Source: Paramyrothecium sp. XJ0827 (Eukaryota; Ascomycota; Sordariomycetes; Hypocreales; Stachybotryaceae). Taken from it: a stretch of 64,000 nucleotides of DNA. The notes below the pieces were generated by a model, which was not told where the DNA came from, made no database searches, and was given only the letters and a program-made list of their open reading frames with translations. Below, piece after piece: positions 4,742 through 64,000 of this stretch (position 1 is its first letter; each line of letters opens with the position of its first letter). The position numbers were made by a program, and so were the translations under genes. The DNA is taken from contig JAJFPB010000006.1 of assembly GCA_020881915.1 (NCBI GenBank), forward strand, positions 4,516,348-4,580,347, given 5' to 3'.

Positions 4742-6850
4742 TTAGCATGTTCCCGAATTTAGCCTGTACTGCGTTAATACGGCTGCATGATCTGATGTCC
4801 ACTCGTTATCAGCATGACCTGGCACTGGTTTCGGGTTCCCTAGTATGTAGGTCCTTGATCCAGTAACCTGGATGCCGCCCGCGTGATAAATAAAGTCGAT
4901 ACGATCCTGGGGCTCTACGCGTCCGGTTGTGCCATCACTGAAGGGGAATATCGGAGACCATGTGTTCCCTGGAGTAGTGGCCGGGTCTAAGTTCCCAATG
5001 CGATATGAGTCGATTAGTCCTGCGTCTGCGGGGATTCGGGATGTTGGCCACTGAATATTAGCATACCCGCAATTCTTTGTCTGCAGCGGCGATATCCAGT
5101 CTAGGTGTGATGGAGCATTGAAGTCGCCAAATAGCATAACAGGTATAGTATTCTTAGCCGCAATATGGGAGCTCATGGCCCTAATAATGGCGGTAATCTC
5201 TCCCGTACGACCCGAGGCGGACTCGCTTGCGAGAATCTGCTGAACCGTCTTCCGCTCATAGCATGCTTCGTAAGGACCGTAAGGATAGGCAGTGAGATGC
5301 GCGTTCCAGATATTAACCTGCTGCCGAGAGCCATCTAGGGCAATGCGAGCAGCAATAGCAACGCCAACATGCGGATATGTTGCTGCGAACGGATACCTAC
5401 TCAGGATAGCCGTCTTCCCATCGTTCCCTGCACTCGCCCAATAATACCACCCTAGTGCCTGGCTTAGCACGCGTGCCCGATTGGGCTCCGCCTCCTGGAG
5501 GCCAACGATATCAACGTTACTATCAAGAAGTGCCTTAAGCTGCTTCTGGTGGTAGTTACTTATTCTTAAGCCACCGGCCCACATATTATATGTCATAACT
5601 CGTATATCCTGGACCAGACATTCCCCAGAGTTACGGACCGGTATAGTAACAACTAGGTCAGCAATTGCACCGTTTCCTGTTGCCCGGACAGTAACCTTGG
5701 AAGAGCCTCCAGAAGTCGGGGTGCCGGTTAGAAAGCCGTTTGAGCTTACAGATACCCAGCCCGCGCCCGATACCTTGCTGAAGCTAGCTGGGCTACTGGT
5801 AAGACCGCCAACGCTGGCCGAGTACGCAGTGCCCTCCTTAGCATTGCGAAGAGTTACGCTTCCTATCGGAAAGCTAATTCCCGGGACTGTTACTGTAATC
5901 GGGCTCGCGAGCCAACCGTACGCGTCACGGGCGAGGAAGAAGGCCCTATAGCTGCCTCCTGCAAGGTCGCCGGTCGGGATAGTGACGGTGCCCGACGTCC
6001 CCGGCGCGTATGCCCACTTGAGAGATGGCTCAACCTTAACCTGGTTGACCGGTCCGCCATCTGATGCGTAGATGCCGATCCAGTTTGTTGCATGCGGCAA
6101 GCTCGTCGTGTAGTCAAAGGTAAACAGTGGGCGGCCCCGGTCCCACGTGAAGGATCCACTTCCAGACATATCAACGTATATCGGATTTGCGACCCAAGTG
6201 TACCCTCCCTGCGCAAGGAAGAAAGCTCTGTATCGGCCCGGAACAAGGCTTCCTGCGGGTATATGGACGTAGGCGCTCAAACTTGGGGTGTATGCCCACG
6301 CGAGAGACTCCTCAACCTGGACCTGGTTCACAGGACCGCCATTTGCATGGTAGATGCCGATCCAGTTTTCGGCATGAGGCCGCACCGTCGAGTATTCAAA
6401 AGTGAACAGGGCGCGATCCGCCGTCAGCGACAGCGAGGAGCCGCTGCCGGTAATCGTGATGTATATAGGAGCAGCGAGCCAAGTATATCCGCCGCGAGCA
6501 AGGAAAAAAGCCCTATATTGGCCGGCGGAGACGCTCCCCATGGGTATACGGACCGTACCACTTAATCCAGCGGTATATCCCCATACAAGAGACTGTTCGA
6601 CCTGGATCTGGTTTATAGGTCCACCATTCTGCTGGTAGATACCGATCCAGTTCTCGGCATGGGGCTCTGTAGTCGAATATTGAAAGGTAGCAATGTAGCC
6701 ATCCTGTCGGAAAGAGAAGCTGCTGGCAAGCGTTGCCTCGAGATTGGAGCCTTTACTCTTGTCAAGAGAGTCAAGGGCATGGGAGGCAACCTGGGGCACC
6801 GCAAGGGTAAATGGGTAGACCAGGAAGAGGGAAAAGAATTTGGGCAACAT
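4742..6850 (-). CDS. Secreted endonuclease/exonuclease/phosphatase-family protein with three N-terminal repeats
   Basis: A single exon encodes about 702 residues. I chose the ATG at 6,850; the frame extends eight codons further upstream only to a TTG. Residues 1 to about 18 look like a signal peptide (basic start, FFSLFLVYPFTLAV core), so secretion is likely. Three tandem repeats of about 90 residues follow (about 44-135, 140-228, 232-322), each with PHAxNWIGIY, GGPxNQ and YRAFFLA blocks. Their NWIGIY core resembles the SKICH-like beta-sandwich (inference). A putative Ig-like segment at 325-405 has a GxLTGTPT motif. The C-terminal 414-700 is an EEP (DNase I/sphingomyelinase/phosphatase-like) fold with TYNMW, GLQEAE (Glu453), GDFNAPS (Asp576) and SDHAAV (Asp687/His688), so the catalytic set looks intact. 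The substrate (nucleic acid, phospholipid or phosphoester) cannot be told. Confidence 0.85.
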   Translation of the reverse strand: MLPKFFSLFLVYPFTLAVPQVASHALDSLDKSKGSNLEATLASSFSFRQDGYIATFQYSTTEPHAENWIGIYQQNGGPINQIQVEQSLVWGYTAGLSGTVRIPMGSVSAGQYRAFFLARGGYTWLAAPIYITITGSGSSLSLTADRALFTFEYSTVRPHAENWIGIYHANGGPVNQVQVEESLAWAYTPSLSAYVHIPAGSLVPGRYRAFFLAQGGYTWVANPIYVDMSGSGSFTWDRGRPLFTFDYTTSLPHATNWIGIYASDGGPVNQVKVEPSLKWAYAPGTSGTVTIPTGDLAGGSYRAFFLARDAYGWLASPITVTVPGISFPIGSVTLRNAKEGTAYSASVGGLTSSPASFSKVSGAGWVSVSSNGFLTGTPTSGGSSKVTVRATGNGAIADLVVTIPVRNSGECLVQDIRVMTYNMWAGGLRISNYHQKQLKALLDSNVDIVGLQEAEPNRARVLSQALGWYYWASAGNDGKTAILSRYPFAATYPHVGVAIAARIALDGSRQQVNIWNAHLTAYPYGPYEACYERKTVQQILASESASGRTGEITAIIRAMSSHIAAKNTIPVMLFGDFNAPSHLDWISPLQTKNCGYANIQWPTSRIPADAGLIDSYRIGNLDPATTPGNTWSPIFPFSDGTTGRVEPQDRIDFIYHAGGIQVTGSRTYILGNPKPVPGHADNEWTSDHAAVLTQYRLNSGTC

Positions 6851-33939: not shown

Positions 33940-34878
33940 GATATTAGCTTAGGGCCTATTACTTATAACTTATGCCATAGACTTAAAGGTTTTTAAAATT
34001 ATATAGTATTCTAAAATATACTAGTAAAATTATACTTAAGGGTTTTTATAAAGTAGTATTAAGGGTTTTTAGGTTCTATAGTAATAAAATAGATTATATA
34101 TATACTATTAGAGAGCTATAATCTTAGAAACTAAGTATATATATTTTTATTTAAAATAAAGTAAAATTATATTTATAGTAGCTATTTAAAATTTGGCCTA
34201 AGTAAATAAAGTAAGATTAAAAGTAGGTCCTAATAACTAGGGAGATTATATTAAGGGAATAGAGCTAGCTATAATAAAGGTAGAAATAATCTATTTTTAT
34301 TTAAGTAATTTAACTTTAATTATTTATTACTACTAATTAAGGGTTAAATAAAAATAGAGGTATTTAATCTATTTACAAAGTTACCTAAATATCTATTTAT
34401 ATTTTATAACTAATATAAGTATATATATATTACTAATAAGATTTAGATATATTTATAGAGATATTATTAAGATATTAATAGTAAGAAAAGGGTAAAGATT
34501 ATTTAAGTAATAAAATTAATCCCAGGAATTATTTATAATTAAATATAATTAAGATAATACCTATTACTAGTAGAAGCTATTAAGCTAGTACTAATTATTA
34601 CTAGGCTATAGCTAGATAATATAAGATATAATTAGTGCCTATATATTATCTAATAAGAGAAGTATATGTGGGATTATACTATAGATAAGTACTAGTAGAA
34701 AAATAAATAGAAATAAGGTAATAATTCCTAAAGAAGAACCTATTAAGTAGAGCGGCTTATACTATAGATAATTAGTATTTATTACTAATGGTTTTTCCTA
34801 TCCTATACTAGTAGTATATAATTTAAAGTTCAAGAGCTAGATATTAAACTAGAGCTAGAAGCCAAGGAATAAGATATT
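33940..34878 (+). pseudogene. RIP-mutated copy of the telomere-linked helicase 5' region
   Basis: Aligns with 56,090-57,005, including about 400 bp of 5' flank and the first 170 codons. Differences are overwhelmingly C-to-T and G-to-A; for example the parent start AAAAATGGAGGCATTCGG reads AAAAATAGAGGTATTTAA here. The Cys and His of the fingers become Tyr. The copy ends abruptly at repeat C. Confidence 0.85.
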
Positions 34879-34884
34879 ATATAA

Positions 34885-35247
34885 AAAATTATAGAGGGTT
34901 ATTCCGTGCTTAGGTATAGGGTTAAGTTAGGTATATGTAATTATATCTTAATATTTATAAGGGGTAACTTCCCCTACCCTTACCTTCCCCCTAATATATT
35001 AGGTAGATTTTTGGCCCCTGGGGGTAAAAATAAGTGGGTCTACTTTAAGAGAATAATATATAATAGAACTATACTATTTTACCCTTAGGGGCAAAACTTA
35101 TATATAGGCCCCTCTATTAACTCTAACTAAGTTTATATATATAATTATATTTATTTTATTTTACTGAACTTATTATTTATATATTATATTTACTAATTTA
35201 GAATAATAGTAATAAACTAGTTTTATTCCTAGGGGTAAAATTAGTAG
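34885..35247 (+). repeat. Direct repeat C, copy 2
   Basis: Direct copy of 33,200-33,600, lying exactly between the end of the helicase relic and the start of an inverted LTR family B copy. The palindrome at 33,411 is imperfect here (TTTTACCCTTAGGGGCAAAA). Confidence 0.55.
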
Positions 35248-44843: not shown

Positions 44844-47800
44844 TCAAAGCAAGATCCACAAAGAAATTCGAGTAGCATCACGCCAGTAATTACCGCTCGC
44901 AATTGTCTCCTGCGTAAAGTTCTCCCCGTCAAACAAATCGAAATGACCCGTATAGCTCGGCCCTTGGTGGTCGGGAGGGGGCGTCAGATCCCAAGTGATC
45001 ACGCCCCTCATGTTCTCCAACTGTGTCTTATCAAAATGCTCACCCGACTTCTTCCTGAGATCGAAGTCTGGCTTTCCCCAGATTCGAGTCAGGAACTTCC
45101 GCATTCCTACCACACGAAGCATGTAGAATTTGCCGTCAGCGCCGGGAACCGCGACTTCGTCTCCGCTATCCTTCTCCGGGATGACAGTACCCGTGTATAG
45201 AAGGCCGCGGGATACACGCACCACGCATGTGTTGCCGACCCATGGCTTGTCCACTTGGCCGCCAATTCTCTGTTTGACTTCGGGAGAGGTGTTTCCCGGT
45301 ACGTCCCATCGAGGGAACTCGGCGAGCAGCTGGTCGTAACGCGGCCTGGTTCCTAGCTTCGCGAGCACAGCCGGCGCTACGGGCACGGCGAACGCAACTC
45401 GCACAGCGCCCTTGGCTGTGGTAGCTTCAATCTGTCGATCTTCTCCGGTTGCATCCTTGGCCGCGTTGATGGCCGACTGAATGACGCCGTCTGTGTGGGG
45501 ACTCTCCTCCGTTGTAGGGCCGCCGTTCATTTGTGCAAGGACTTGCGATGTGTGCTCCTCCAACTTCTCGGGAGACACGAGCAACCCCTTGTCGCGTGCA
45601 CGTGCAATAGAAGCAAGCTTCTTGTCCGCATCAATCGTGGCTTGCTGCTTGCTTGTCAACTGCGCAAGCTCTAGCGCGGCCGCTTGGTTGCCAAACGTTG
45701 TCGCTAGGGATGCCGCAGTCTTGAGACCCTCTGTCGCCAGAGTCTGAGTGCCTGCCAAGCCTGCCATATCCCGGAAGGCCGCACTGTTTTGAACAGCACT
45801 CAGAACTCCAGCAAGTCCTTGTGGTGCTGGCGCTGGTAAGGCGTTTTGGAGATTGATGAGAGTGTCTGGCATCTTGGTTGGTTCCGTAGCTGTGTCAGGG
45901 TTAGACCTTCGGCTCGTGAGGAGAGCCGCATCGATAGCACCCAGCTCAGGGTCGGGGTCGTTAAGGGCCCAGTCAAGGTTACCATAGTGCTCTTCGAGGG
46001 CGACACATTCATCCATGATGGTCTGGGCGTACAAGCCGTCCGTCGACAAGCTGATGTTCATTGGGGTGGAGACTCCTTGGTGTTGCTGATAATGATTATA
46101 CAGGCCATCAGGGGTTTTGAACTGTGGCGTGCCAACAAAACAACCCGCCGACACACGGAATATTAAGCAATTTCCAGCAGCCGAGATTGGATTGCGCTCG
46201 ACGACTGAGGCAATGCTGGTCTGAGGGGTCATGCCCGGGACGTAGAAACCATCCAAGAGCATGAACAGACGATCGCGATCCATATTCCACCAAATCATAC
46301 GATGGTAGTACTCCACGTGCTCATTGAGGTGCTCTAGCATCTCGGTTGTTTGGTATACAAGCTCGGCCCTGAGGTTTTGTAGCTCGTACTGGCTGAGCGG
46401 TGACCGCAAGATTGCACCTAGTGTATCGACGTCACCGTTTTCAGGCGACACAAGGTCGCCAACGCCCTCACTAACAGTCACTGTTCTCTTTTCGTAGTCT
46501 GTCTGATACGTGTAAGTGAGAGATCGGACGTTGGCAACAGAGCCTGGCGTAAGCGCTCTTCCTGCCTTGATGGTGAGGGAGGTCAAGGAAGCCCTTGAGA
46601 GGCTGTTATCCGTGAGGTTGACCTGGAAGTCTACCCGTACGGTCCGATTAAAGGCATAAGAAGTGGCCAATGTGAAATCGATAGCGAGTTCTGTGCCGGT
46701 TCGTGTCGTAATCTGGAGCTTGTCGCACCATTTTCTAGCAATCGCAGGCGCATGGTGCCGTTGGAAATGGGCCTCTCGAAGCGCTTCGACTTGCGTAGCC
46801 ACCTGCTGGAAGACGGATAGAGCCGGCATGCCGAGAAGGCCACCTAGAATTGTCCACTTGGTAGCATCGAACTTGCCATCCGTAGTGGACCCTGGCAATG
46901 CCACTCCTAGGTCGATATAAATCGAGCCATAGAGTGATCGAAGAGGATGATCGGCACGCCTGCCATGCGGAATCTGGGAGTACTTGAAACCAGTCAAGAT
47001 ATCTTTCAGGTGTCTCATAGGACGGTCGAAGCGCCTAAGATAGTCAGTTTGTTCTAATCGCTGCTTGTAGTTGAATTCCTCCGCTTACCTCTCTCTTAGG
47101 ACCCTGAGCAGGGTTTCTCGCCAACGATATGCTCTCTGCATTGTGAATGGCTTCATCGCGAAAGGCACAAAGAGCGCTTCGCGGACTCCCGCAAACTCGG
47201 TGTCCACGCGGAGGTGTCTCAAGATATTGTGGTAGATGACAGTCAGGCTGTGGGCGTAGTTGATGTTGCGCACAATCTCAACGGTACCCGTCACTTCTTC
47301 GTCCTGATTGACTTCCTGAACGACCATGCTCTCAAACTTGCGCAAGTCATCGCCGTGGCGGTGGATAGCGTCGCGCCACTGCATCTCCTCTTTGGCCGTG
47401 GTGTCTCGGCCTCCGGATTGCTGACTCGACGACCGGGCGGAAGAGTGAGCGACGCCACCTCCGATGACAAATGGGCCGAGGGCAAGGCCTGCACCGCCCG
47501 CTGCGCCCGTAACACTGCTTTGAGAGCTACCTTGGGCCCACTCGCGCAGGTTCGCCGAGACGACATCTGAGTAGGACGTATCGTGGACCATTGAGTCGTT
47601 CACGTCATTAGAAGCGCGTTGAGACTCGCTGCGGATTGCTCGCTCAGATCTCGACCACTCAATCTTCTGGATCCCTGCAATCGGAGTTAGCGTCATTCAA
47701 ACCGGGTTGTGTTCTGTAGTTTGGACGTACGTTTGGTCTGGCGTGGTGCAAGTGTAAGAGTTTTAGACACTCCGCCGAGGCTGTATCCATTGCTCCGAGT

Positions 47801-49834: not shown

Positions 49835-50977
49835 GGGCTACTACCCTAGGTATTATTTGTAGTTAATTTATATATAACTACCTATATAAAGAGTACTAAG
49901 TAGTCTAAGCTTTTATATAAGATAGCTTTATATAAGACTATTAATTAGATTTTTTTAAGTAAAGTAATCTATATATTTACCTAATAATATTTATATAATA
50001 TTATTAGTAGAGATTCTTAGTATTATATAAGTAATTAAAAATATTCCCAAAGCTATAATCTAATAAAGTACTAATATTATATATATAACTATAAAGAATA
50101 TAGTTATAAGGTATATTTATTTATTTAATACTTATTTTAAACTTATAAGTTAATTTCTATAAGGTAACTTATATTTAGATTAAAAGTAGTAGAGATTTAA
50201 AGATTAAGATTTAGATTAAGATTTATAAATAATAGACTACTAGCTAGTATCTTAGGATTAAATTAAATATATTTCTTTTATAATATAGTATTTAATATAT
50301 TACCTAATATTAAAAGGGCTTAATTATTATCTTTATTTAACTCTTCTTAGTATATTTATACTATACTTTTTATATTAGGGCTTAATATTATAAAAAGCTA
50401 TATTTTAGTTAACTATAAATATAAGATTATACTTTATATTTTATATTAAGCTATATTATAACCTAGTTATAGTATTAAAATATATTTCTATAATTAATAT
50501 TAATTTAAGGGCTAAATACTATAAGATATTAAGGATTACTATAAGGTATAATAGTTCTAAAACCTAGCTATAGTTAAATTACTAGTAAATAGTAACTTAT
50601 TTATTTTAGGACTTAAGATACTAAATAATATAAGCTATAGGGATTACTATATACTAATTATATACTAGAGTAATTTAGAGTAGTACTAGTAATATATATA
50701 TAGTAGTTATATACTATAATATAACTAAGTAAAGCTATAGTTATAAATATACTTATATCTAAGATATTAGATTATTAAAATAATAAATAAAGAAGAATCT
50801 ATAGTACTAATATTTAGCTAACTTAATATAATTATTACTAAAGGTATAATAAAGCTAGAGAGAGAGTATATATAGAGACTAGAGTATAGTAATATATATA
50901 AGGACTATAATTATAACTTAACTTAAATTAAAGAAATAAAGTAGATTAAGTATATTAATATTTAGAATCTTATTATT

Positions 50978-51621
50978 ATAACCCGCACTAACCCCGTAAC
51001 TAAGCCAGTATAGAATAAATATAATCTATACTAATTATAATAGATACTACGTAGAAAAGCTAGGTAAACTAACTAGCGGACTATAACCTAAATATATACC
51101 GGTTCTTACTAAGGATATAGTTATATAGGATTAATATAGCTAGAGGTTTAGATAGATAATAGGGGAATATATTAGGTGTAATGTAGCTACTATCCTAGGG
51201 ATCTAGTAGAATATAGTCCCCACCTAGCAAGGCAGAAAAGGGCTAGTGCCTAATTACCTTAGAACTAAGGATATAGGTGAATTCCTATATAATACTAAGT
51301 AAGGAAAGGGCTAATTATATATATGTACTTATGTACTGCAACTAAGTGCATTAAACTAAGTGTACTAGTGATTACCCCAATGGAGTAATTATAATAAGTA
51401 TATAGATAGGAGGATTCTACCTTAGGATAAATAGAAGACTACTAGCTATTAATAATATATAGTCCCCAAGATAACCTTTACTATACTATTCTCTTATTAA
51501 CTAGTAATAATCCCTTATATACTTTAGATACTTTCCTATTATTCTATCTAAGGATAAATAAATCCCTAACGATCCTTAGTTACCCTATATCTTTTGGTAT
51601 AAGGCTACCCTGATTGTTATA
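50978..51621 (+). repeat. LTR family B, best preserved copy
   Basis: Same orientation as 31,282-31,926. It keeps motifs such as AACCCGCACTAACCCCGTAAC at the start and GGCTACCCTGATTGTTATA at the end, so it is the least RIP-damaged copy. The family B LTR length is about 644 bp. Confidence 0.7.
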
Positions 51622-51629
51622 CTTATTAA

Positions 51630-54600
51630 AGTTTATAATATTACTTTATTACTATAAGCTAATATTAAGAAAAGATAAGAAGAAATTAATAAAGGTACTA
51701 AAAAGAAAGAAGCTTAGGATCTAAAGGTCTTATTTAAAAGCTTTAATTAAGAAGTTAATTACTATAGCTAGTAGTTAAATAGTATCCTAAAGAAGACTTT
51801 ATAATATTTATATAATATTAAGATTAATAAGCTAAATAGTAGATTATTTAGAAATATAATATAAGAGAGATTATAGAAGAAGTATAAAATAATAAGTTAT
51901 TACTACTTAGTATTCTACTAGTAAGTATTTTAATTAAAATAATAAAAAGTAGAAAAGAAACTTATTATATTCTTTATAAATAAATAGTAAAACTAAATAA
52001 AGGAGATTAATTATTATATACTATTTATAAGTATAGCTATAGCTACTCTAAAAATATAATACTAAGATAATCTATTTAGTAGTAATAGTAATAATAACTA
52101 TAGTAAATTAGAGAGTATATCTAGAGATAAAAATATAGGGATTATAAATTCGGTCTTATAAGATCTTAATATAAGTATATTTTAGTTTATAGTAGCTTTT
52201 ATTAATATAAAAATAAGAAATAATATATATAATAATATATTACTATACTTTTATACTATATTAGGTATTTACTAATATCTATTAGGATTTATAGAGGTAT
52301 TTCTCTATATAAGTATATTAGTAACTTTATTATAATTATATTAACTCTTCTATTTAGAGTATAGTTTTAAAGATATATTACTTAAATTAAAATAAATTAA
52401 CTTAAATAAAGTAGAAGAGTTCTAGAAGTACTATAAGAAGTATATATATATTAGTAAGTATAGTATTATTAGTAAGATTATTAACTAGATAATATATAGT
52501 AAGGGTTATTATAATAGAATAGGTAATACCCTATTAATATAGTAATTAGAAGATAAGAGATTACTATATTATAATAGGAAGTAGCTATTTATAGAGGACT
52601 TCTAGTAAGTAATATATAAACTTATTTAGAAGATTAAATAATTAATAAATAATCTATTTAGTAGGTTATAAGCTTAGATTAAATTAATTATTAATTTAAA
52701 GTAAATTATTAATAAGGTTATATAAATAGAGGTAGATTAGTTATTTACTACTAATAAGAAAAATATATAATTAAAGACTAGATTAGGTAAGGCTATTTAA
52801 GCTAATTAAGCTTTACTTTTTAATATAATTAGAGGCAAGTAGTAATATACTAGTATATAGAAGTAGCTCTAATAATTTTATAAATCTACAGAGTATATTA
52901 TATCTCTAGTTTATATATAGGGCAACTAGCTAGGTTATAAGCTAGAGATTATAATAATATAGTACTATAATATAATATAATTAATATATAATATTATTAT
53001 ATATAAGAGCTAGATTATAATTATAATAGATTATAATAAGATAAAAGCAATTTATAATAGTGGCTATAAAGTAGTATAGTTTTTACTAGAGTATATAGAA
53101 TATATAGTAGTAATATATATTTTATAGCTCTAGGATATAAAGCTACTACTTTAATATAGTTATAAGTTATTACTACTATATAAAAATAACTTAGAGTTTA
53201 TATAGAGAAGTAGGAATTCTAGCTACTAGGATATAATTAAGCTAAGTAAGATTATAGCCTAGTAGTTATAGGAGAAAATAAAGATATAGCTTAGTATAGG
53301 TAGGTATTATATAGTTATAATAATAATAGGTTAGAAAATCTATAGCTTAGTAATAAAGTAGGTTAAGGGTTTAGCTAGTAAAGATAATAATAATAAAGGA
53401 GTTAAATTTAATTTATTAATAAGTAAGCTAATAGATATAAGTAGAAGCTAGAATATAATCTAGGATCTATAGGTTATATATAAAATAAAAATAATATAAT
53501 TTAAATATATTATTTATATTAACTTACCTAGGTAATTATAACTAAATATAATTATAATATTCTAAGTAATTAGTAGGCTATAGTATTAGTTTCTAATAGA
53601 AGGTAATTTATTTTATACTAAATAGAAGTATAAGTAACTAAATAATAGTAATATTTAAATTAGATTAAAGAAGAAAGTAAGGTATATAAGAAAAATAATA
53701 ATACTAGCTAAAGTAGAGAGGTAAATAATTAATAGACTTTAGAAATTAATAGGCCTAGGGTTAATATAGTACTTAAATAAGTAAAGGGAGTATATATAGG
53801 TAATCTTAGTACTAAAGGGAAACTAAGGGCTTATATATATTTTATTAATAGGGGCTAGTAAGAGTTTACTCTTTATAGTACTAGCTATTATACTAGACTA
53901 AGAGATAAGTATTATTATAGTTCTATTTATAGTATTAAAGCTTAACTTATTAGATTAAGTAAAATAACTAGGTATAAATATTATTAAGTTTTCTATATTA
54001 AATATCTCTTTAAGAAAGAGGCTTCTAAGAATAATAAAAATAGTAGTTATAAGTATAGATATAGTTCTAATTAAGAGCTTTCTAGTATATATAGAGGGGC
54101 TTTAGATTATAAAATAGCTAGATATAATCTTTATTAATAAGGCTTATATTATAATTACTAATATATTATATTAATAGAGATTAGAAGAACTTAAGGGTCT
54201 ATATTAATTTAAGTAGCTAGTAGTTTTATTAATAGCTATATTACTAATCTAATTTAAGAACTAGTTCTAGAAGGAGCTACTAGTAGAATTAGTAGATATT
54301 ATTTAAGATTAGATAATAAAGCTTAATTACTAGTATAAAGTTAATAAAATTAAAGTAGAACTAGGTATAGTAGAAGCTTAAGTTATTAAGCTAGTTAAGT
54401 AGGTTAATAAGATAATAACTATAGGGTAGAGAGAAGTAGTATATTATAGATTAATTAGCTAGTATAAGGTACTTATAGAAATATTAGGCTATAATATATA
54501 TTATAATAAGATAAAAAGGTTATAATAAAATAAGGTATAAGTAATATAAGTAAAGAGCTACTTCTATTAATAGATTATAGTAATAATAGGGCTAGAGATA

Positions 54601-55130
54601 GAAATAAATATTAGGGGTATAGTAGTAATTATATATATAGAGCTACTATATAGGCTTATTAACTTTATTTAGTAAATAGAATAAGATATAAAATAGGAGG
54701 GTAAAGTAGTGAGGTTAATTATTATATATAATAGGTAGCTATTATATAAGCTAGTAGGAATAGATAAGATTAATAATATTAATTAGATATAAGTAATATA
54801 ATTTATTAAAAGCCTAGGGTACTAGTAGGAAGTAATTTTAATATTTATAAATAGAGTTATAGAAGAGATATATACTAGTATTACTAGAGCTATCTTATAT
54901 AATTATTATAGGTAAGTAGAGTTAGAAATATTAAAAAGTAAAATAATTAAGTTAATTAATAAAAATAAAAAAGTAAGCTAGGGGGGATTAGCTATAAAGA
55001 ATATTATAAGCCTAATTAAGTTATAGTAGAGGCAGTATATATAAAATAAAGTAAGAAATAAGAGAATATTTATATAGTAGTTAGATAAGATAAAAGAGTT
55101 ATATCTAATATACTTTATTAAGAAATATAA
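51630..55130 (+). pseudogene. RIP-mutated RecQ-type helicase relic, different from the telomere-linked gene
   Basis: Read with RIP-shifted codons, the plus strand keeps helicase landmarks in order: a Walker A as GASKSLLFIVLA near 53,848 (ancestral GAGKS), the motif Ia region ISIIIVLFIVLKLNLLD, VISIDIVLIKSF, motif II as IIFINKAYIIIT near 54,130 (ancestral DEAH), YYRLIS, YNIYYNKIK near 54,500 and LEIEINIRGIVVIIYIELLY near 54,595, where intact RecQ enzymes have GTGIDI. The N-terminal 2 kb resembles an OrsD-associated region. Walker A and motif II wording differ from the gene at 56,495, so it is a separate helicase family. Confidence 0.7.
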
Positions 55131-56494
55131 TAGGAGATCTAAAGGGTAAGTATTTTATAGTAAGTACTTAAAGAGAGAAGAGTAATATAAACTAGATATA
55201 GAGAAGATATATAAAGTATTATAGTAGAAGATAGTATTTAGGGCAAACTTATATTACTTCTAATATAAATTACTATTAGATTAGTATAAGGAAAATAAGG
55301 AGAATAAAGAGAATAGAGAATAAATATACTATTATATAAATAAAGTATTACTAGTAGTATTAATAAGATTAAATAATAAAGGACTTAGGAATTAAATTAA
55401 AGATAAGTTTAATATTAATATAGAAAATAAGAAGAAGTTTTTTAAATAACTTATAAAATAAGTAGATTTCTATAGTATAAATAGTATATATATCTATTTA
55501 TTATAGGAAGTAATTATAAGGAAATTAGGTTTTTAATAAAATAGAAGTAAAATAATTAAGTATAGATATTCTAGACTTATAAGTTTAATATTAATATTAA
55601 AGGACTTATAAATCTAAAAGTAAAGGCTTTTTATTTTATTTTTTATTTTAATAATTAGGGTTTAAGAAAATCTATTTAATATTAAAATAATATATATATA
55701 AACTAATAAATTAAATAAAGAACTAAAGTAAAATAAACTAAGTATTAATTAAAGATTTAATATAATAAAATTAATAGTATTATATAAATATTTACTAATT
55801 ACCTAATAAAATAAGTAAAGTAATAGATTTAAGAAAGGCTATAAGGTAGGTTTTTAAGATTTAAATAAAGTAAGTAAAGTATTAGAGTTAATATAAAATA
55901 AAATAAAGACTTAGAGAGCATAGGGGGATTAATTTAGGATTATAAAATATAGGAGAAGTAGTATAAAACTAAAGAAATTTACTATAAGAGTAAAATTATA
56001 AGGTAAGCTATATAATATAGTATAGGCTTAGATTTAGTAAGTTAGCTTTATATAAAATAAGAGAAATAAGAGAGGTTTAATAAAGGAAGGTAAGACCTAT
56101 CACTTATGACTTGTGCCATGGACTCAAAGGTTTTTGAAATTACATACATTTTATTTTCGCGCTAATGAAACTGGCGTCCATGGTTTTTGCAAAGTGGCGT
56201 CTATGGTTTTTGGGTTAGACAGCAGTAAAATACATAATATATATATCAATAGAGAGCCACGATCTTGGAGACTAAGCACGTATGTTTTTATTTAAAATGA
56301 AGCAGAATTGCATTTCTGGTGGCCATCCGAAATTCGGCCCAAGTAAATGAAGTGAGGTTGAGAGTGGGTCCCGACGACCAGGGAGGCCATGTTAAGGGGA
56401 TAGAGCCAGCCATAATAAAGGTAGAGATAACCCATTTCCATTTAAGTAATCCAACTTCAACCATTCATTGCCACCGATTAAGGGTTAAGTAAAA

Positions 56495-59400
56495 ATGGAG
56501 GCATTCGGTCCATTCACAAAGTTACCCGAATATCCATTCATGCTTTGTAACCAATGTGAGCATGCATGTATTGCCGATGAGGTTCAGACGCATTTACGGA
56601 GACATCATCGAGATATTGATAGCAAGGAAAGGGCGAAGATCATCCAAGCGGTAAAGTTAATCCCGGGAATTATTTATGACCAGACGCAGTTAAGACAATA
56701 CCCGTTGCCGGTGGAAGCCATCGAGCCGGTGCCAATCATCGCCAGGCCACAGCCAGATGGTATAAGATGTAATCAGTGCCCATATATTGTCCGACGAGAG
56801 AAGCATATGCGGGATCACGCCACGGATAAGCACCAGTGGAAAAATGAACGGAGACAAGGCGATAGTTCCCGAAGAAGAACCCATCAAGCGGAGCGGCTTG
56901 TGCCATGGACGACCGGCGTTTATTGCCAACGGTTTTTCCCGTCCCGAGCCGGCAGTGCATGGTTCGAAGTTCGAGAGCCAGGTGTTAAACCAGAGCCAGA
57001 AGCCGAGGAACGAGACATCATGCGAAAGATTGAGGAGTTCCACAGTACGCAAGAGCAGCGGTTCAAGGAAGCCGAGAAAGAAGATCGGATCGAAGAAGTG
57101 AACCAGAAATTCGAGGCCAACGCATGGTTGGGCAGGGTGGGTTGGTCAGTCCATTTGAAGGGTTTAGACCGCAATGCATTGCGGGCCATGACCGGACCCA
57201 TCGGGGACGAAGAGGGTGTGTTGCGGCAGGTGTGCGAGAGTTTAGACCGTACCATGGAATGGTCGAGGGGTTTATGCCGCCCGAGCAAAGTTGGGACAGC
57301 CGCGTTATTCGAAATCAACCGGCGAGAAGTTGGGAAGAAACCCGCACAACCGTTTGAAGGGCGGATGGAAGATGATTCATGGATACGATATAAGGAGGTA
57401 TGGCGCAAGATCACAAGCATATGGTACCGAACGCAGCAACAGGAAGACGAGGACGAACGACCGCCGTATCAGTTCACGAGCGCACAGCAGGCAGCGTGGG
57501 ATGCATTCATACAGCATGCACGAACCCGCGACGAAGCGTTCCAGGGCAAGAGTAAACCAACAAACAATCCGCCATCGGATGGAGCAATTGATCGGCAGTG
57601 TTTGGAGATGGTTATGTTGTTTTTGGATCATCAGGTGGGCGATAATGAACATCAGAATGCCATTGTTAGCGCGTTGGCCGTATTAGGCATTCGCGAAGAT
57701 GGTGGTTGGTACGACCCGTCGGATTATACACCCGTTTTGTCAGCCGTGATCAAGGTGGCCCGCATGTTTGCCATCGGTTGGGCATATCGGCAACGCGAGG
57801 AAGAGGTGCAGTTAACCAGGAGGGTGCACAATATGGAGGAGAGATTAGCACGCGAGCGTACGCCGGGCATGTTCACCCGCGTACGGAAAATGGTTCGTAA
57901 GTTTATGACCCGTGTCGGCGACGGACGATCAGAACAACCCGGCCCGATGGATTGGATATTGGAGACACGGACATACGGCATGCACATTCGGTTCAATACA
58001 ACGGCGGGCGGCAGCATCGATTGGAAGGAGAGCAAGTCCAATACAAGCGAACCAAGTTCACAATGGGTCAATTAACGGAAATGATACACGCCGTCGTCGT
58101 CGAGGCGAGGGAGTTATTATGCAAGTTGGCCATGGTTGACGGCAGCGAAGAAGGGTTCAGCAAGTTACCGCATATCCCGTGGGATCGTGTGGAGGACGAC
58201 AATAGCGAGGACAAGGTGGGTTATTCGTTTTTAGAGGACAGCCGCAACACATGGTTGGAGCAAGGCAAGGGTTGGGTATTCACACGGTTGGTTCAGCGCA
58301 AGGAACTGCAAAAGAATGGATTTCGACCGATGAAAAGCAAAAGCATCCGTACAAAAAGAAGGCATTGCAGGAGTACAGCAAAATATTGGAGCGGTTCCGG
58401 GAGTTGATGTGGTTTTTGAAGCATTTATTGTCAATGCCCGCGCGATTATGGGAAATTTTAGGAATACGGTATAAGAACACCAGCAACGGCGGCACACGCA
58501 ACATTTTTATCCACAACGGCGACGTATGTTTCGTTACAGCATACCATAAAAATTTCCAGCAAACGGGCCAGGCGAAAATCATTCACCGTTTTATACCCAG
58601 AGAGGTTGGGGAATTATTGGTTTGGTATTTGTGGTTGGTGTTGCCGTTTTGGCAGCAGGTGCAGGGTATGGTCAAGGGTGCAGACCAAGTAAGCCCATTT
58701 TTATGGAGCGAAGAGATCGCATACCGCAAGCGGCACCACAACAGCGACGAAGACGAGGGATATAGCAGCGAGGAGGAAGGAGAAAGGAGTTTGGAGAAGA
58801 AAAGGGTAGTACGGACGGAATTGGCAACAAGGAGAGTTTGGCACAAGCAAGGTCAAGTCGGGCAAGTCGGTCAAGTCAGGTAGGTCGGTCAAGTCGGTCA
58901 AGCCAGTCGGAAGACGAAGGCATCGATATGACCATACCCGTTGAATGGAAGAATTGGGTGGGGAAAGAAAATGGACACCGGATCGGGCGCGGCGAATTTT
59001 ACAGCAGATCAGCCAGCGATTAATGGGTTGTCGGTTGAATATCAGCGTATGGCGGCACATCGCCATCGCGATATCCAACCGGTATTTAGGAGGCAAGTTT
59101 GCAAAGAGGGTGGGAGAAGACGGGGTGGAATACGAAGACGAGGACGGGATCGACAATGACGCGGCGGATTTACAGGCCGGCCACCAATCGCATATCGCGG
59201 GTATAATTTATGCGCGAGAGTTACAACAAGGGTTAGGAGGCACAGCGCGGATGCGGGAGGAATTCCGGAACATCAGCCACGAGTTACATCGATTTTTCGG
59301 GTTCGGTACAGGGGCGAGTGCGCAGGGCGGGCGGAAGCGCAAGCGAGATCAGTTCGAAAGCGAGCGGGAGGAAGGGCGATTCCGACGATTACATCGGTTA

Positions 59401-61318
59401 CGGCAAGTCGATATTTCCGGACAGTTACAGCAGATGATGGGACGAGGGACAGAGTTTCGTGGTCAACAGTCGAAGGTGATCCGGGCCATCATCGCGGGGA
59501 AACGCCGATTATCCAGATCACAAGCACGGGTGGAGGCAAGAGTTTGTCGTTCATGTTGCCGGCATATTGTTCACCAGAGGGGACAACGATCGTTGTAGTG
59601 CCATTGGTTGCATTGCAGGAAGATTTACATAAACGTTGCACGGAGTTCCAAATTACGTCCCATATATGGAACAGCCAGCAGGGAACGCCGACAGCAAGCA
59701 TAGTTTTCGTGACGCCCGAGTCAGCGGTGACGGGCGGGTTCCGAGATTACGTCAACCGATTGCAAAACCAGGGTGTTTTGGACCGAGTGATTTTAGAAGA
59801 GTGCCACACATTAATGGATGGCAGCGCAACGTTCCGGCCAAAGTTAAGCGAAGTCGGAAAGGTGGTTCGGGAGTGGGGTGTGCAGCGGGTATTTTTAACA
59901 GCCACGATGGGCCCGGACGAGATGGTCGAGTTTTACAAGGTGGCGGCGATCCAGCCCGGGCGGGAGGTAGTGTTTCGAAGCAAAACAACACGACGCAACA
60001 TACGGTACAGCGTCATCAAGGTGGAGCATAGGAGTAATAAAGCAAGGGGCAAAGGGAAGGCACATTGGAGGCAAGAGGAAGAGGAGGCACAGATGGCAGA
60101 AGATAAGAGGATCAAAGAGGTTGTAGAAGCATGGATCCGTGGAGGACACGACGGCAAGGTGATCATTTATGGCGGGTCAGTGGAACGGGTGAAGAGGTTA
60201 GGGAGATGTTTGGTTGTGGCACATATTACAACAAGGTCGACACAAAGGAGGGCAAGAAGGAACGGTTACAGATGTGGATGATGGGAGAGAGAGAATTATA
60301 GTGGCAACGAACGCATTAGGGATGGGAATCGATATACCCGACATAAGGTTGGTAGTGCATGGATGGATGCCGAGGCGAATTCGAGATTACGTACAGGAGA
60401 GCGGGCGAGCGGGACGAGACGGGCAAGTCAGCGATGCGGTTGTTATTTGCCGGGGTTGAAACAAGATAAGCAAGAGGCCGAGAGGCGGCAAAAGGCAAAG
60501 GCCGAGCAGAGCGGGTGGTGTAAGGAAGAAAGAGAGGAGAGAAGTGTGGATTACGTGGAGAGGGAGGAATGCCGGCGAAAGATATTGGATATGTCGATGG
60601 ATGGTCGAACGGATCGAGAGGGGTGTGAAGAAGGTGAAGAGCAATGCGATGTTTGCGGACGAATAGAAGAAAAGTTGGACAACCAAAGCCAAGACCAAGG
60701 CCAAGACCAAGACGAAGTCGAATACGCAGAGGCACAAATAGCGTTCGACCGGCAGAGACGAGATATTGCATTCCAAGAGTGGCAAAGCAGGAAGCAAATG
60801 ATGGAGGAAACGGCGATGGCGAGCGAGTTGGAGGGTTATTTGGAAAGTTGGGCAGAGTGTTGTGCGATTTGCCGGATGGGGGATGAGGCAGATGAGCACA
60901 GAATGGAAGAGTGCCCGTTAAAGGGTACGGCAGGGTACAGAGAGGTGAGCGGGGTTATGGCAAGGATAGAAGAGGAGATGTTTCGAAAGCGAGGGTTTGA
61001 ACCGTACAGCGGTTGTTTTGGGTGTGGGTTGCCATACAAGGTTTGTAATGGATGGAAGGTAATGGATGATGACGGGGGGAGATACGAGAAGATACAGGGA
61101 GGGAAATGTCAGTATGAAGGAGTATTGGCGCGGTTTTACGGGGCAGCCGTTTGTATTTTCCAGGATAAGGTCAAGGGGTTAAGTGGGCAAGAGAGAGAGT
61201 CGAGGGGTTTTATACATGGGCAGGAAGGAGGATTAAGTTATGGGGTGGGATGGAGACAAATGAGATGTGCCGGGGATTTGCAGAGTTATGTAAGTGGATA
61301 ATGGAAGAGGAGGAGTGA
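56495..61318 (+). pseudogene. Telomere-linked RecQ-like helicase with OrsD-type N-terminus, nine frame changes
   Basis: From the ATG at 56,495 the first 510 codons give two C2H2-like fingers (CNQCEHACI..HLRRHH and CNQC..HMRDH) typical of the OrsD/DUF3505 domain, then RNIFIHNGDVCFVTAYHK and REVGELLVWYLWLVLPFW of the helicase-associated region. Helicase motifs follow: TSTGGGKSLSF (Walker A, about 59,530), VVPLVALQEDL, VILEECHT (motif II, with Glu where RecQ has Asp), FLTATM, VATNALGMGIDIPDIR, and QESGRAGRDG. A Cys-rich tail (CAICRMGDEADEHRMEECPL, CFGCGLPYKVC) ends in GGMETNEMCRGFAELCKW and a TGA at 61,316. The frame changes at about 58,024, 58,312, 58,800, 58,972, 59,499, 60,210, 60,293, 60,456 and 61,235, each time by one missing base, mostly in homopolymers. 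It may be an intact gene with sequence errors. Confidence 0.8.
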
Positions 61319-61455
61319 ATAGAGCATTTAGTATAAAGAGAATAGATATTAGGGTTAGGGCGAGAATACAATTATTAGGGGTTGGTGTAGTAGTTATAGG
61401 TAGAGAGAGTTAGGGTATATTTGTAGTTTAGGGTAGTAGTAGGGTTGGAATAAAG

Positions 61456-61459
<4 letters not shown>

Positions 61460-61485
<26 letters not shown>
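61460..61485 (+). repeat. Poly-A tract of about 26 bases
   Basis: An uninterrupted A run about 140 bp after the helicase stop codon. It could be a simple-repeat expansion or the trace of a retro-inserted transcript. Confidence 0.85.
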
Positions 61486-61490
<5 letters not shown>

Positions 61491-61578
61491 AAGGAAAACA
61501 GCGAAGGAATAAAGTGCCGTCCAAGAAAGAGGCAATGCCAGTAAGGCAGAAGAAGAAAGAGAGAATGAGAGAGTAGAT

Positions 61579-61712
61579 TAACAAGCCATCCGGGCAGAAA
61601 AAGAGCGGCATCAGTTAGGCGTAAAAAGGGTGGAGAGAGGGAGAGAAGGAAAGAGAGAGAAGAGTAACAAACCATCCGGGCAGGAAAAGAGCCGCGCCGG
61701 TCAGGCGTAAAT
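61579..61712 (+). repeat. Subtelomeric module, two copies
   Basis: TAACAAGCCATCCGGGCAG at 61,579 and TAACAAACCATCCGGGCAG at 61,665, each followed by AAAAGAGC, GGC and an AGGCGTAAA segment; period about 86 bp. A related AAAAGAGCCAGGCCGGCGAG module recurs at 63,253-63,402. Confidence 0.65.
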
Positions 61713-61744
61713 AAACGGGGAGAGGTATGCCCGTAGAGAGGAGT

Positions 61745-62109
61745 ATTAGATTGGATTGCAGCGCAGGTGTGGGCCGAAGAGGTGAAGAAGATAGTATTTA
61801 AGGCCAGGCGGTTTACGAGTTTCAGCGGGTGTTTTAATTGCGGGATGCCACAGGGGATTTACCAGCAATGGGTGGCGGCAAAGGAGGACGAGGGGCATTT
61901 GCCCAGATATAAGGAAGCAGTGCCAGTATAGAGGTGTATTAGAAAAGGTTTGGGGCGCGGGGTTAGGGTTTTACCACGACGAGACGATGGAAATAATAAA
62001 GGAGATGGGTATAATTGGGGAAGAAGAGGTGGACAAGTTTATATGGATAGGTAAGAAGGTAAGATGGGGCGGGCATGAGACAAATAATATATGTGTGGGG
62101 TTTATATAA
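61745..62109 (+). pseudogene. Second telomere-linked helicase C-terminal fragment
   Basis: Reads FTSFSGCFNCGMPQGIYQQW, then after one frame change QCQYRGVLEKVWGAGLGFYH, and ends KVRWGGHETNNICVGF followed by TAA. This parallels the last 110 codons of the helicase at 56,495-61,318 (SGCFGCGLPY, KCQYEGVLARFYG, WGGMETNEMC) but with clear divergence, so it comes from a different family member. No helicase motor is attached. Confidence 0.75.
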
Positions 62110-62220
62110 ATTTGTAGATTATTATATAATAGAGGTTAGAAGAGATATATAATTTTAGAGGGTTATAGGTATTATTATTTATACGGCGGAGTAGAGACAG
62201 TTAGGGTTAGGTTTAATTAA

Positions 62221-62320
62221 TATGGTTAGGGTGAGGTTTAATTAATATGGTTAGGGTGAGGTTTAATTAATATGGTTAGGGTGAGGTTGCATTTATATGG
62301 TTAGGGTGAGAAAGGTTGCC
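62221..62320 (+). repeat. 25-bp telomere-like tandem repeat, four copies
   Basis: The unit TATGGTTAGGGTGAGGTTTAATTAA starts at 62,221, 62,246, 62,271 and 62,296; the first two units are identical and the later ones diverge at their ends. Each unit contains GGTTAGGG. Confidence 0.85.
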
Positions 62321-63252
62321 CATGTTTGCAGGCCATAGAGTAAGTGTGGATAGTATGGTATAGTATGTAGAGACCAAGGAGTGTTAATAGATTAGGCGGG
62401 ATTTGACGATAAAATCGAAACGTAGGCCCAGACCAATTAGTTTAAGATGGGAACAAGTCAATGAGAAGGGTTAGGGTAAGCAGATAATGAAGGGAGGAGG
62501 GCGGATAGTAGATTAGGTAAAGACAACGGGTTATTAGCAAAGGCAGCGGTAACAGAGAAGCCAGTGTTGTAGTGAAGATATAGAGATAGATAAATGGCGG
62601 CGTAGGTGAATACAACAGTTAGGTAGGAGGAGGCAGGCATGGCGTAGACGGCGAGAGTTATAGCAGCAGCAAGAAGGCAAGCAGTAGCCAAGATGGCGGT
62701 GACAGAGACAGTAGGCATTAGGTAAGATAAAAGAAGGGCCGTCAATAGAGTTAGCAGGCAAGAATTAAAACAAAAGAAGTCAGTAGAGAAGCAACGGACA
62801 ATATAAGCAGGCAGGCAGGAAAGCAAGGGTTTAGCCAGGTAGGTAGAGACAAGGATTAGAATAAATAGCCAAGACGAATAGCGGAGAGGTAAAGAGCAGC
62901 AAGAAAGGGTAAAAAAGAAGGAGGAGGGGTAGATAGAGGGGTTAAGGTTTATATAGGAAGAATAGAGAAGAAAAGTCGGATTACAGAATATACAAAGGCA
63001 GAAGTACAAAAGGGAAGGAAACAGCAGGGATTGCAATGTAATATAAGGCGGGCAGTTAGAAAAGAAGCAAGCAGCAGGCAGTTAGACCCACAATAAGTGA
63101 TGTGCGGCCATGTGGAGGCGGGAGGATTTAGGGGATTAGTAGTAGAGGGCGGAACCGGACCGGGCGAATAGGGTTAAGGTTAAGGGGTAGAGATCGGAGG
63201 TCGGAGGTCAGAGGAGAAGGGAGGGAGGAGGGTTTAAATGGGTTAGGGTTAA

Positions 63253-63402
63253 TAATTAAGGGCGACAGCAAGAAAAGAGCCAGGCCGGCGAGGCCATAGT
63301 TAGGGTTAGTTATAGAAGGGTTTTAGGGGAGAGTTAAAAAGAGTTATAAATAATTAAGGGCGACAGCGGGAAAAGAGCCAGGCCGGCGAGGCCACAGTTA
63401 AG
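63253..63402 (+). repeat. 99-bp period subtelomeric module
   Basis: TAATTAAGGGCGACAGC followed by GAAAAGAGCCAGGCCGGCGA occurs at 63,253 and 63,352, with two decayed relatives at about 63,790 and 63,885 (AGAGTCAGGCCAGTGAGGC and AAGCCAGGCAAGCAAGGCC). Confidence 0.7.
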
Positions 63403-63449
63403 ATTAGGGAGTAATTAGTAATAAGGTAAGATAGCAAGGGAAAGGGTTA

Positions 63450-63625
63450 GGGGGAGGGGTTTATGGTGAGGGTTAGGGGGAGGGGTTTATGGTGAGGGTT
63501 AGGGGAGGAGTTTATAGTGAGGGTTAGGGGAGGGGTTTATGGTGAGGGTTAGGGGAGGAGTTTATAGTGAGGGTTAGGGGAGGGGTTTATGGTGAGGGTT
63601 AGGGGAGGAGTTTAGGGTAATAGTT
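63450..63625 (+). repeat. 25-bp telomere-like tandem array with 50-bp higher order
   Basis: TTTA starts recur at 63,460, 63,486, 63,511, 63,536, 63,561, 63,586 and 63,611. From 63,486 on, two unit types alternate, GGGGTTTATGGTGAGGGTTA and GGAGTTTATAGTGAGGGTTA. Each carries GAGGGTTAGGGG. Confidence 0.85.
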
Positions 63626-64000
63626 AGGAAAAGTAATTAGTAATAAGGTAAGAGCGCGAGGGAAAGATTAAAAGATATAAAAAGAGATAATATAAGGGTT
63701 ATAGAATTTAATAGTATATTTAATAAAATAAATAAAAGTAAAGAGTTATAAGTTAATAGTAGTTAGCATTAAAAAGAGCATATAAATAATTAAAGATAAT
63801 AATTAGAAAAGAGTCAGGCCAGTGAGGCAAAAATAAAGTTATAAAAGGGTTTTAGAGAAGATTTAAAAAGAGTAATTTAGAATGAAGAGTAATAGCAGGA
63901 AACAAGCCAGGCAAGCAAGGCCACAATTAAAGTTATAGGGTTTTAAGATATAGAAGTCCATTATTAAAAGGCAGGAAATGAAGTGAAGTAATCAATTAAA

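What the first reader, a model, noticed from the sequence alone, without database searches (positions are those of the whole stretch)
56317..64000. Strand-specific near-total loss of the CT dinucleotide over the telomere-proximal 7.7 kb
Reading every line of the plus strand from 56,317 to 64,000 I find CT only at 56,455, 56,543, 56,897 and 58,306, and none in the last 5.7 kb, although TC, CC, CA, CG and TT are all common there. AG, the complement of CT, is abundant, so the void is strand-specific. It covers the helicase reading frame (Leu is written TTA/TTG, while GCT, ACT, CCT and CTN codons are avoided), the second helicase fragment and the non-coding telomeric repeats, so codon choice cannot explain it. 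The 230 bp just left of 56,317 hold about ten CTs. RIP in this window is strand-symmetric and hits CA/CG. A strand-biased process acting on C in CpT of the G-rich or coding strand fits, for example deamination of a strand displaced by a transcript hybrid. The mechanism is inference; the void is directly visible.
Basis: partly seen in the sequence, partly recalled or inferred. Interest (0 to 1): 0.95.

Follow-up and report, generated by a model that had tools for sequence, protein, structure and literature searches.

The report
One-strand CT loss at chromosome ends
At the chromosome ends of a fungus, the DNA carrying a helicase gene has lost almost every C-followed-by-T on one strand only, a related element from a second fungus shows the same loss, and this suggests a mutation process tied to chromosome ends that we did not find described.

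Summary
The void is real. Plus-strand 56,317-64,000 holds 4 CT against 231 expected (lowest of 2,000 shuffles 184), while AG is normal. It recurs in 20 near-identical copies of a telomere-linked helicase (TLH) element, 19 at contig ends and one 10 kb in, and flips strand at left ends. A second fungus's element, found as contamination in a bacterial MAG, shares the terminal 12-mer, has an intact helicase frame and the same void, starting at nearly the same internal point and deepening 3'-ward. A same-orientation helicase paralogue just 5' of it has normal CT. Divergent copies show CT creation still suppressed: T>C before T 1/161, elsewhere 34/316. Displaced RIP-mutated copies keep RIP-made CTs. 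Where the second element has CT, the first mostly has TT (15/21).

Best reading: long-running C-to-T mutation at CpT on the G-rich, 3'-ending strand of the terminal element while that strand is single-stranded. Whether an RNA hybrid or end recombination exposes it, and which enzyme acts, is unresolved. Codon choice, RIP, a one-off event and assembly artefact are disfavoured. No prior description surfaced in seven targeted open-access searches.

The parts
56096..64000 (+). Terminal TLH element, right-end copy; left terminus fixed, right side runs to the contig end
   Evidence: The 11 other copies fetched over this border match the window exactly from 56,095-56,097 rightwards for 220-222 bp up to 56,316 and differ from it to the left; terminal 25-mer present once at each of 20 copies, plus 6 further matches
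56096..56316 (+). 5' segment of the element that keeps CT at normal frequency
   Evidence: 10 CT against 12.1 expected; same segment in 11 other copies; 7 of 10 CTs kept in an old RIP-mutated copy
56317..64000 (+). CT void on the plus strand
   Evidence: 4 CT against 231 in shuffles; single change point 56,323, support 56,323-56,561
56495..58075 (+). N-terminal helicase frame with OrsD domain (526 aa), inside the void
   Evidence: the ORF listing; Pfam OrsD E=3e-17; 62% identical to L052 protein over 512 residues
59544..60281 (+). DEAD-box part of the helicase
   Evidence: Pfam DEAD E=7e-8
60214..60459 (+). Helicase C-terminal domain part
   Evidence: Pfam Helicase_C E=5e-14
61302..64000 (+). 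Sequence 3' of the main helicase frame up to the contig end, still CT-void (0 CT); includes a duplicated C-terminal helicase piece at about 61,782-62,118
58306..58307 (+). Residual CT shared by all 20 copies and by the five old copies whose alignment covers it
33955..34897 (+). Old RIP-mutated copy of the first about 940 bp of the element; beyond the same internal border 36 of its 38 CTs stand at CC in the end copy

Best explanation
A strand-specific C-to-T mutational process acts at CpT on the G-rich, 3'-ending strand of the terminal TLH element, from about 230 bp inside the element's conserved terminus to the chromosome end, for as long as a copy stays terminal. SHOWN: near-total CT loss on that strand only, at all end copies of one genome and in one element of a second fungus; deepening loss toward the element's 3' end; suppression of new CTs during 15-30% divergence; CT mainly matched by TT; persistence of RIP-made CTs in displaced copies; normal CT in a neighbouring paralogue. 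INFERRED: that the cause is mutation rather than selection; that the target is single-stranded DNA (the same strand is exposed by an RNA hybrid on the C-rich template, by 5' resection, and as the nascent strand of break-induced replication toward the end); and that a deaminase-like activity preferring CpT does it. The enzyme is unknown. Among the sources of single strands I slightly favour end recombination (break-induced replication with resection), because it also accounts for the near-identity of the 20 copies and for loss that rises from the homology border to the end. A TLH/TERRA-like transcript hybrid is nearly as likely and could act together with it.
For: 4 CT against 231, AG normal, TT raised to 1.60 with mirror AA 0.93. 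Each of 20 copies has one CT in the 3.2-4.9 kb fetched, and the polarity flips at left ends. Second fungus: same terminus, intact 1,556-aa frame, same void and nearly the same onset, deeper 3'-ward. Paralogue 5' of it and paralogous frames on three other contigs of that bin have near-normal CT. T>C before T 1/161 against 34/316 (p=8e-6); purine>C before T 0/327 against 26/1,284 (p=0.005); mirror class not suppressed. Random placement of the C4-copy substitutions predicts 13-21 CT, 1 seen. L052 CT is TT in the window at 15 of 21 aligned sites. In six displaced RIP-mutated copies 264 of 293 CTs stand at CC of the end copy, and CC became CT 264 times, TT 35 times. The eight contig ends without the element, first or last 3 kb, have normal CT.
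Against: Four CTs persist in every end copy, and the one at 58,306 is in all five old copies whose alignment covers it, which sits badly with a fast purge. Internal copies that are not RIP-mutated (C4, C2) remain CT-void although 15-30% diverged, so terminal position may not be required. T is rarer than A on the void strand, which C-to-T alone does not give. The window's onset is sharp, and its gradient rests on only 4 CTs. No known CpT-specific deaminase; the APOBEC_N search was uninformative. The second fungus is one element from one bin, and its contig end is not shown to be a telomere. No experiment shows single-stranded DNA here.
Confidence: 0.6

Rival explanations
1. Transcript-hybrid version of the mutational model alone: RNA made from the TLH promoter to the telomere hybridises to the C-rich strand, and the displaced G-rich strand is deaminated at CpT. 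End recombination plays no part in the exposure.
For: Onset 165-172 bp before the start codon in both species, while the segment before it keeps CT; void strand equals coding strand and is G-rich, with GC skew rising from 0.16 to 0.62.
Against: Loss deepens away from the presumed start; a TATATATA lies before the onset in the window and after it in L052; the same-orientation paralogue 5' of L052 has normal CT; no transcript data.
Confidence: 0.3
2. Selection, not mutation: CT in DNA or CU in the transcript is harmful in a terminal element, so each new CT is removed by selection.
For: Few CTs persist at fixed places in all copies and in old copies; internal copies stay void; third codon positions differ more than first and second, so the gene is constrained.
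Against: 0 CT also in the 2.7 kb 3' of the main frame; every CT of a bare dinucleotide would need an appreciable cost; graded strength along L052; related paralogues with normal CT.
Confidence: 0.13
3. RNA-templated version: the TLH transcript is changed from C to U at CpU, or misread, copied into DNA from its 3' end at chromosome ends, and spread by recombination.
For: Loss stronger toward the 3' end, as 3'-primed copying would give; the L052 frame is one uninterrupted 1,556-aa frame; onset near a plausible transcript start.
Against: No reverse transcriptase was looked for or seen in the element; no editing data; needs two unproven steps.
Confidence: 0.06
4. One-off ancestral event: a single burst removed CT and all copies inherited it.
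For: The 20 end copies are near-identical and count as one.
Against: CT creation still suppressed during 15-30% divergence; void in a second fungus at about 62% protein identity.
Confidence: 0.03
5. Sequencing or assembly artefact at G-rich ends.
For: Frame breaks differ between near-identical copies, so indel errors are probably present.
Against: Shown at contig ends of both orientations, each on the matching strand; L052 comes from an independent metagenome assembly; old RIP-mutated copies record the same void.
Confidence: 0.01

Closest known systems
RIP (repeat-induced point mutation)
   Same: C-to-T changes in repeated DNA of filamentous fungi; active in this genome on displaced TLH copies
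   Different: RIP here hits CA, CG and TG on both strands and spares CT; the void is CT on one strand, with CA raised to 1.34
Strand-coordinated deaminase mutation of single-stranded DNA (APOBEC-type clusters, break-induced replication)
   Same: One-strand C-to-T over kilobases toward a chromosome end; nascent BIR strands are known as mutable single strands (abstract of PMC9262586)
   Different: Known APOBEC contexts are set by the base 5' of C (recalled); here the 3' T decides; no APOBEC-like gene was found, but that search was uninformative
Telomere-linked helicases (TLH) of fungi, e.g. in Fusarium oxysporum and Pyricularia
   Same: RecQ-type helicase genes at most chromosome ends (PMC12857005, passages; PMC8381367, passages)
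Telomere-associated 'Helitron' G103 of Colletotrichum destructivum
   Same: One repeated element associated with the telomeres of all 12 chromosomes (PMC11338638, passages)
R-loop-linked deamination (AID type)
   Same: Would hit the displaced non-template strand, which is the void strand
   Different: AID context and 5' bias (recalled) do not match CpT and the 3'-ward deepening

Membership tests
Telomere-linked helicase element | OrsD / RecQ-type helicase domains | tested here: met
   OrsD, DEAD, Helicase_C
Telomere-linked helicase element | Located at most chromosome ends | tested here: met
   19 of 28 ends of 14 contigs within about 8 kb, one more about 10 kb in; the other 8 ends lack it in the 3 kb seen
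RIP | C-to-T mainly at CpA (here also CpG), on both strands | tested here: not met
   CA 1.34, CG 1.08, AG 1.10, CT 0.02 in the void
Strand-coordinated mutation of single-stranded DNA | Changes at C on one strand only over kilobases | tested here: met
   CT lost, AG kept; polarity flips with the end
Strand-coordinated mutation of single-stranded DNA | Measured single-stranded DNA or hybrid at the site | not testable with these tools
   needs wet-lab mapping
APOBEC/AID deamination | Context set by the 5' neighbour (TC, CC or WRC; recalled) | tested here: not met
   TC 0.79 and CC 1.40 remain while CT is 0.02
APOBEC/AID deamination | An APOBEC-family gene in the genome | tested here: inconclusive
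   PF08210 gave nothing in the genome or in any control; nine PF14441 matches are of a family described as A-to-I RNA editor
R-loop-linked deamination | Onset at a transcript start and loss strongest near it | tested here: inconclusive
   Onset 165-172 bp before the start codon but loss deepens downstream; transcript start unknown

The most novel reading that the evidence does not exclude
Some fungi run a dedicated, chromosome-end-directed cytosine-mutating activity with CpT specificity on the 3'-ending strand. It rewrites the terminal helicase element over evolutionary time without destroying its coding capacity, since C-to-T at CpT cannot create a stop codon in the sense frame. Copies that hold a live chromosome end are written this way and escape RIP; displaced copies lose it and fall to RIP.
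Probability: 0.35. Interest if true: 0.95.

Novelty: categorically new. Interest (0 to 1): 0.88.

Why it matters
A near-absolute one-strand dinucleotide void of several kilobases is unlike RIP or the deaminase footprints I know. If it is mutational, it is a natural recorder of which strand is exposed at chromosome ends and how far inward, and it points to an unidentified activity with CpT preference. It also separates terminal copies (CT-void, not RIP-mutated) from displaced ones (RIP-mutated), so the history of ends could be read from sequence. It can be tested at once in complete fungal genomes that carry TLH elements.

Tried and rejected
Codon choice: rejected, because the void also covers sequence before the start codon and 2.7 kb 3' of the main frame, and paralogues of the protein family have near-normal CT. 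RIP: rejected by context and strand. One-off event: disfavoured by the suppression tests. Artefact: see rivals. Deaminase candidates: nine PF14441 matches, but that family is described as an A-to-I RNA editor in Neurospora; the PF08210 search rang nowhere, controls included, so it says nothing. More species: three scans of viral contigs gave no usable relative (one search gave one locus of 24% identity, L061, not examined). PLSDB by tblastn gave 207 records, all under 60% identity; of the 10 listed, 7 are annotated as RecQ and 3 carry no annotation. Species name: the best-named relatives of the N-terminal frame are Claviceps and Hirsutella; an early guess of Colletotrichum destructivum from assembly size was not pursued (its published assembly has 12 complete chromosomes, passages, this one 15 contigs); a third protein search on another window gene named no close species; the organism is left unnamed. 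SNPs among end copies were too few and too mixed with alignment indels to use. The alignment of L030 was poor (58% identity) and is not relied on. If L052 is analysed only from its element terminus, the best single change point is 4,692 instead of 2,382, which I read as the gradient. Rfam and tRNA scans gave nothing. Helicase-part protein search gave relatives of Claviceps, Purpureocillium and others but no DNA.
Full report
THE OBSERVATION. From 56,317 to 64,000 the plus strand has 4 CT (56,455, 56,543, 56,897, 58,306) where its base content predicts 231. None of 2,000 shuffles fell below 184, and none of the 194 equal windows examined left of 56,096 has a CT odds ratio below 0.96. AG on the same strand is normal (1.10). 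TT is raised (1.60) while its mirror AA is not (0.93). The longest CT-free run left of 56,096 is 128 bp; here it is 5,695 bp.

WHERE IT SITS. The window is the right end of contig C12 of a 51.8-Mb, 15-contig genome that the tools leave unnamed; the best-named protein relatives of the helicase's N-terminal frame are from Claviceps, Hirsutella and Podospora. The void lies inside a repeated element whose left terminus is at 56,096: the 11 other copies fetched over this border match the window exactly from 56,095-56,097 up to 56,316 and differ from it to the left; three of the 11 (C10, C9 and C3 left) share one left flank with each other. Twenty near-identical copies exist: 19 at 99-100% with their terminus within about 8.1 kb of a contig end, and one on C1 (97%) about 10 kb in and cut short on its outer side. 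Of the 28 ends of the 14 contigs other than C6 (not examined), those 19 carry the element, C1 left has it 10 kb in, and the other 8 ends, 3 kb seen at each, have normal CT and AG, as do the first 3 kb of C1. Only C13 left shows an exact array of four or more TTAGGG, so most contigs stop short of the telomere repeats.

ALL COPIES, BOTH STRANDS. Each of the 20 copies has exactly one CT in the 3.2-4.9 kb fetched, matching 58,306. The 12 copies fetched over the 5' part each have the same four CTs (places shifted by up to four bases through indels) and 299-302 AG in about 3.5 kb. Copies at left ends lack AG on the contig's plus strand instead, so the void follows the G-rich strand that ends 3' at the end. 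Because these copies are almost identical they count as one observation; the comparisons below are the independent ones.

A SECOND FUNGUS. A scan of genome contigs with an alignment of 15 N-terminal sequences (14 of the 60 relatives found, plus the window) gave one locus, L052, in a bin labelled Erythrobacter. I take it as fungal contamination: it encodes an intact 1,556-aa helicase of this family, 62% identical to the window's N-terminal frame and 68-73% to two Claviceps proteins. Its element starts with the same 12 letters, CTATCACTTATG, right after a run of N. CT is about normal up to 2,380, is at 0.12-0.29 of expectation between 2,547 and 4,700 (0 of 6.2 just before), and only 3 CT occur in the last 4.4 kb. 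Over the locus the best change point is 2,382 (support 2,328-2,440), 243 bp inside the terminus and 165 bp before the start codon. In the window it is 56,323 (support 56,323-56,561), 226 bp inside and 172 bp before the start codon. Analysed only from the terminus, L052's best single change point is instead 4,692 (4,511-5,225), which I read as the gradient. CT sites lie nearer the 5' side than TT sites in both (L052 p=4e-6; window p=0.0014, on 4 CTs), with no trend in the mirror AG/AA. On the same contig, just 5' and in the same orientation, lies a paralogous helicase (31% identity) with normal CT; related frames on three other contigs of the bin are near normal too. The void is therefore not a property of the protein family.

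STILL ACTIVE OVER LONG TIMES. Relatives inside the genome that are not RIP-mutated (C4 at 152 and 951 kb, 85% identical; C2 at 1.21 Mb, 79%; C2 at 1.70 Mb, 68-79% in short pieces) have CT-free runs of 1,812, 1,813, 1,038 and 1,955 bp. The C4 copies and the C2 1.21-Mb copy have near-normal CT in flanking sequence; the 1.70-Mb run is matched to the window only in parts. Comparing three of them (one of the C4 pair, and both C2 copies) with the end copy, T to C before T happened at 1 of 161 sites against 34 of 316 before other bases (p=8e-6), and purine to C before T at 0 of 327 against 26 of 1,284 (p=0.005). The mirror class on the other strand was not suppressed but raised (34/187 against 53/536, p=0.004). 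Placing the observed C4 substitutions at random gives 13-21 CT on average against 1 seen. Third codon positions of the C4 comparison differ about twice as often as the others (118/567 against 56/570 and 46/569), so the gene was under some constraint meanwhile.

DIRECTION. Of 21 CTs in the L052 frame that align with the window, 15 are TT there, many at leucine codons (CTG to TTG or TTA) and at junctions such as GAC|T to GAT|T; the other six are CC (2), AA, TG, AT and GT. Among 1,511 mapped window codons there are 79 TTA/TTG and 2 CTN leucines, no GCT, TCT or CCT, and one ACT.

DISPLACED COPIES. Six older copies lying inboard of end copies are RIP-mutated at CA, CG and TG. Of their 293 CTs, 264 stand at CC in the end copy, that is, RIP made them from CC; CC became CT 264 times and TT 35 times. 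The old fragment at 33,955-34,897 of this window shows the same border: 7 of 10 CTs of the 221-bp segment are kept, and beyond it 36 of 38 CTs stand at CC. So the ancestor was already CT-void beyond the same border, and most CTs that arise after displacement are not removed.

HOW IT MOST LIKELY WORKS. A mutational process converts C to T at CpT on the strand that ends 3' at the telomere while a copy is terminal. Three sources expose that strand: a hybrid of TLH/TERRA-like RNA with the C-rich strand, 5' resection, and the nascent strand of break-induced replication, which accumulates as mutable single-stranded DNA (abstract of PMC9262586). End recombination also accounts for the near-identity of the copies and for loss that rises from the homology border outward; the onset shortly before the start codon favours RNA. 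I cannot separate them here. The strict CpT context points to an activity not identified here; the nine PF14441 matches are of a family described as an A-to-I RNA editor (passages of PMC12754623).

RESULTS AGAINST. Four CTs persist in the end copies, and the one at 58,306 is in all five old copies whose alignment covers it (L027 does not), which sits badly with a fast purge. Internal copies that escaped RIP keep the void away from ends: either they came recently from another end lineage or the process is not strictly terminal. T is rarer than A on the void strand. The window's onset is sharper than a linear rise from the homology border would give. A TATATATA lies before the onset in the window and after it in L052. 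L052 is one element from one bin, and its contig end is not shown to be a telomere.

WHAT IS KNOWN. TLH genes at fungal chromosome ends, and RIP, are known. I searched the open-access library ten times; seven searches aimed at this feature (listings of 20 of 103, 2, 4, 12 of 299, 4, 3 and 4 papers), and no title or abstract start listed describes it. I saw passages of PMC12857005 (12 of 21 places), PMC11338638 (12 of 14), PMC8381367 and PMC12754623, and the abstract and outline of PMC9262586; no whole paper was read. Subscription papers and preprints were not searchable, so an earlier report there cannot be excluded. I rate the feature categorically new because tested defining features of RIP and of APOBEC/AID deamination are not met, while its mechanism remains inference.

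Noticed in passing
window 56096; loci L040-L051: The element border CTATCACTTATG is preceded at several ends by short (CTATC)n arrays (e.g. L040, L043, L045), and the 12-mer is identical in the second fungus, where a run of N precedes it. It looks like the terminus of a mobile or recombining element.
   Followed up: partly
all 20 end copies versus L021, L024, L025, L027, L028, L029: Twenty near-identical 7-8 kb copies show no RIP in a genome where RIP is otherwise severe, while displaced copies a few kb further in are heavily RIP-mutated.
   Followed up: partly
window 50000-56095: The AT-rich block inboard of the element has GC skew up to 0.55 and weak transition-blind similarity to the helicase at 54,421-54,725 and 55,262-55,344, perhaps an older terminal element erased by RIP.
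   Followed up: partly
G000:C4:150653-155131 and C4:949357-953835 (L022, L023): Two internal TLH copies in opposite orientation, with 0 mismatches and 11 gaps over 3,753 aligned bases, 85% identical to the end copies and still CT-void.
   Followed up: partly
window 58075-60460 and other end copies: Frame breaks of the helicase lie at different places in near-identical copies, so some are probably assembly indels.
   Followed up: no
L052-L057, L059, L060 (bin of JAPYPR010000039.1): A bin labelled Erythrobacter holds a contig with a fungal telomere-linked helicase and further contigs with related frames, i.e. probable eukaryotic contamination of a species-representative genome. A hit labelled Massilia sp. 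(P0013) may be another case.
   Followed up: no
window 44844-47018: A 724-aa gene whose relatives are mostly unnamed metagenome proteins, several with Pfam PF14113, with bacterial and one fungal name (Cryoendolithus) among the 74 hits; possible gene transfer.
   Followed up: no
G000, nine places on C2, C7, C9, C10, C14: At least nine genes with the OTT_1508-like deaminase domain PF14441.
   Followed up: no
window 58306: One CT that survives in all 20 end copies and in the five old copies that cover it; why this one is spared is unexplained.
   Followed up: no
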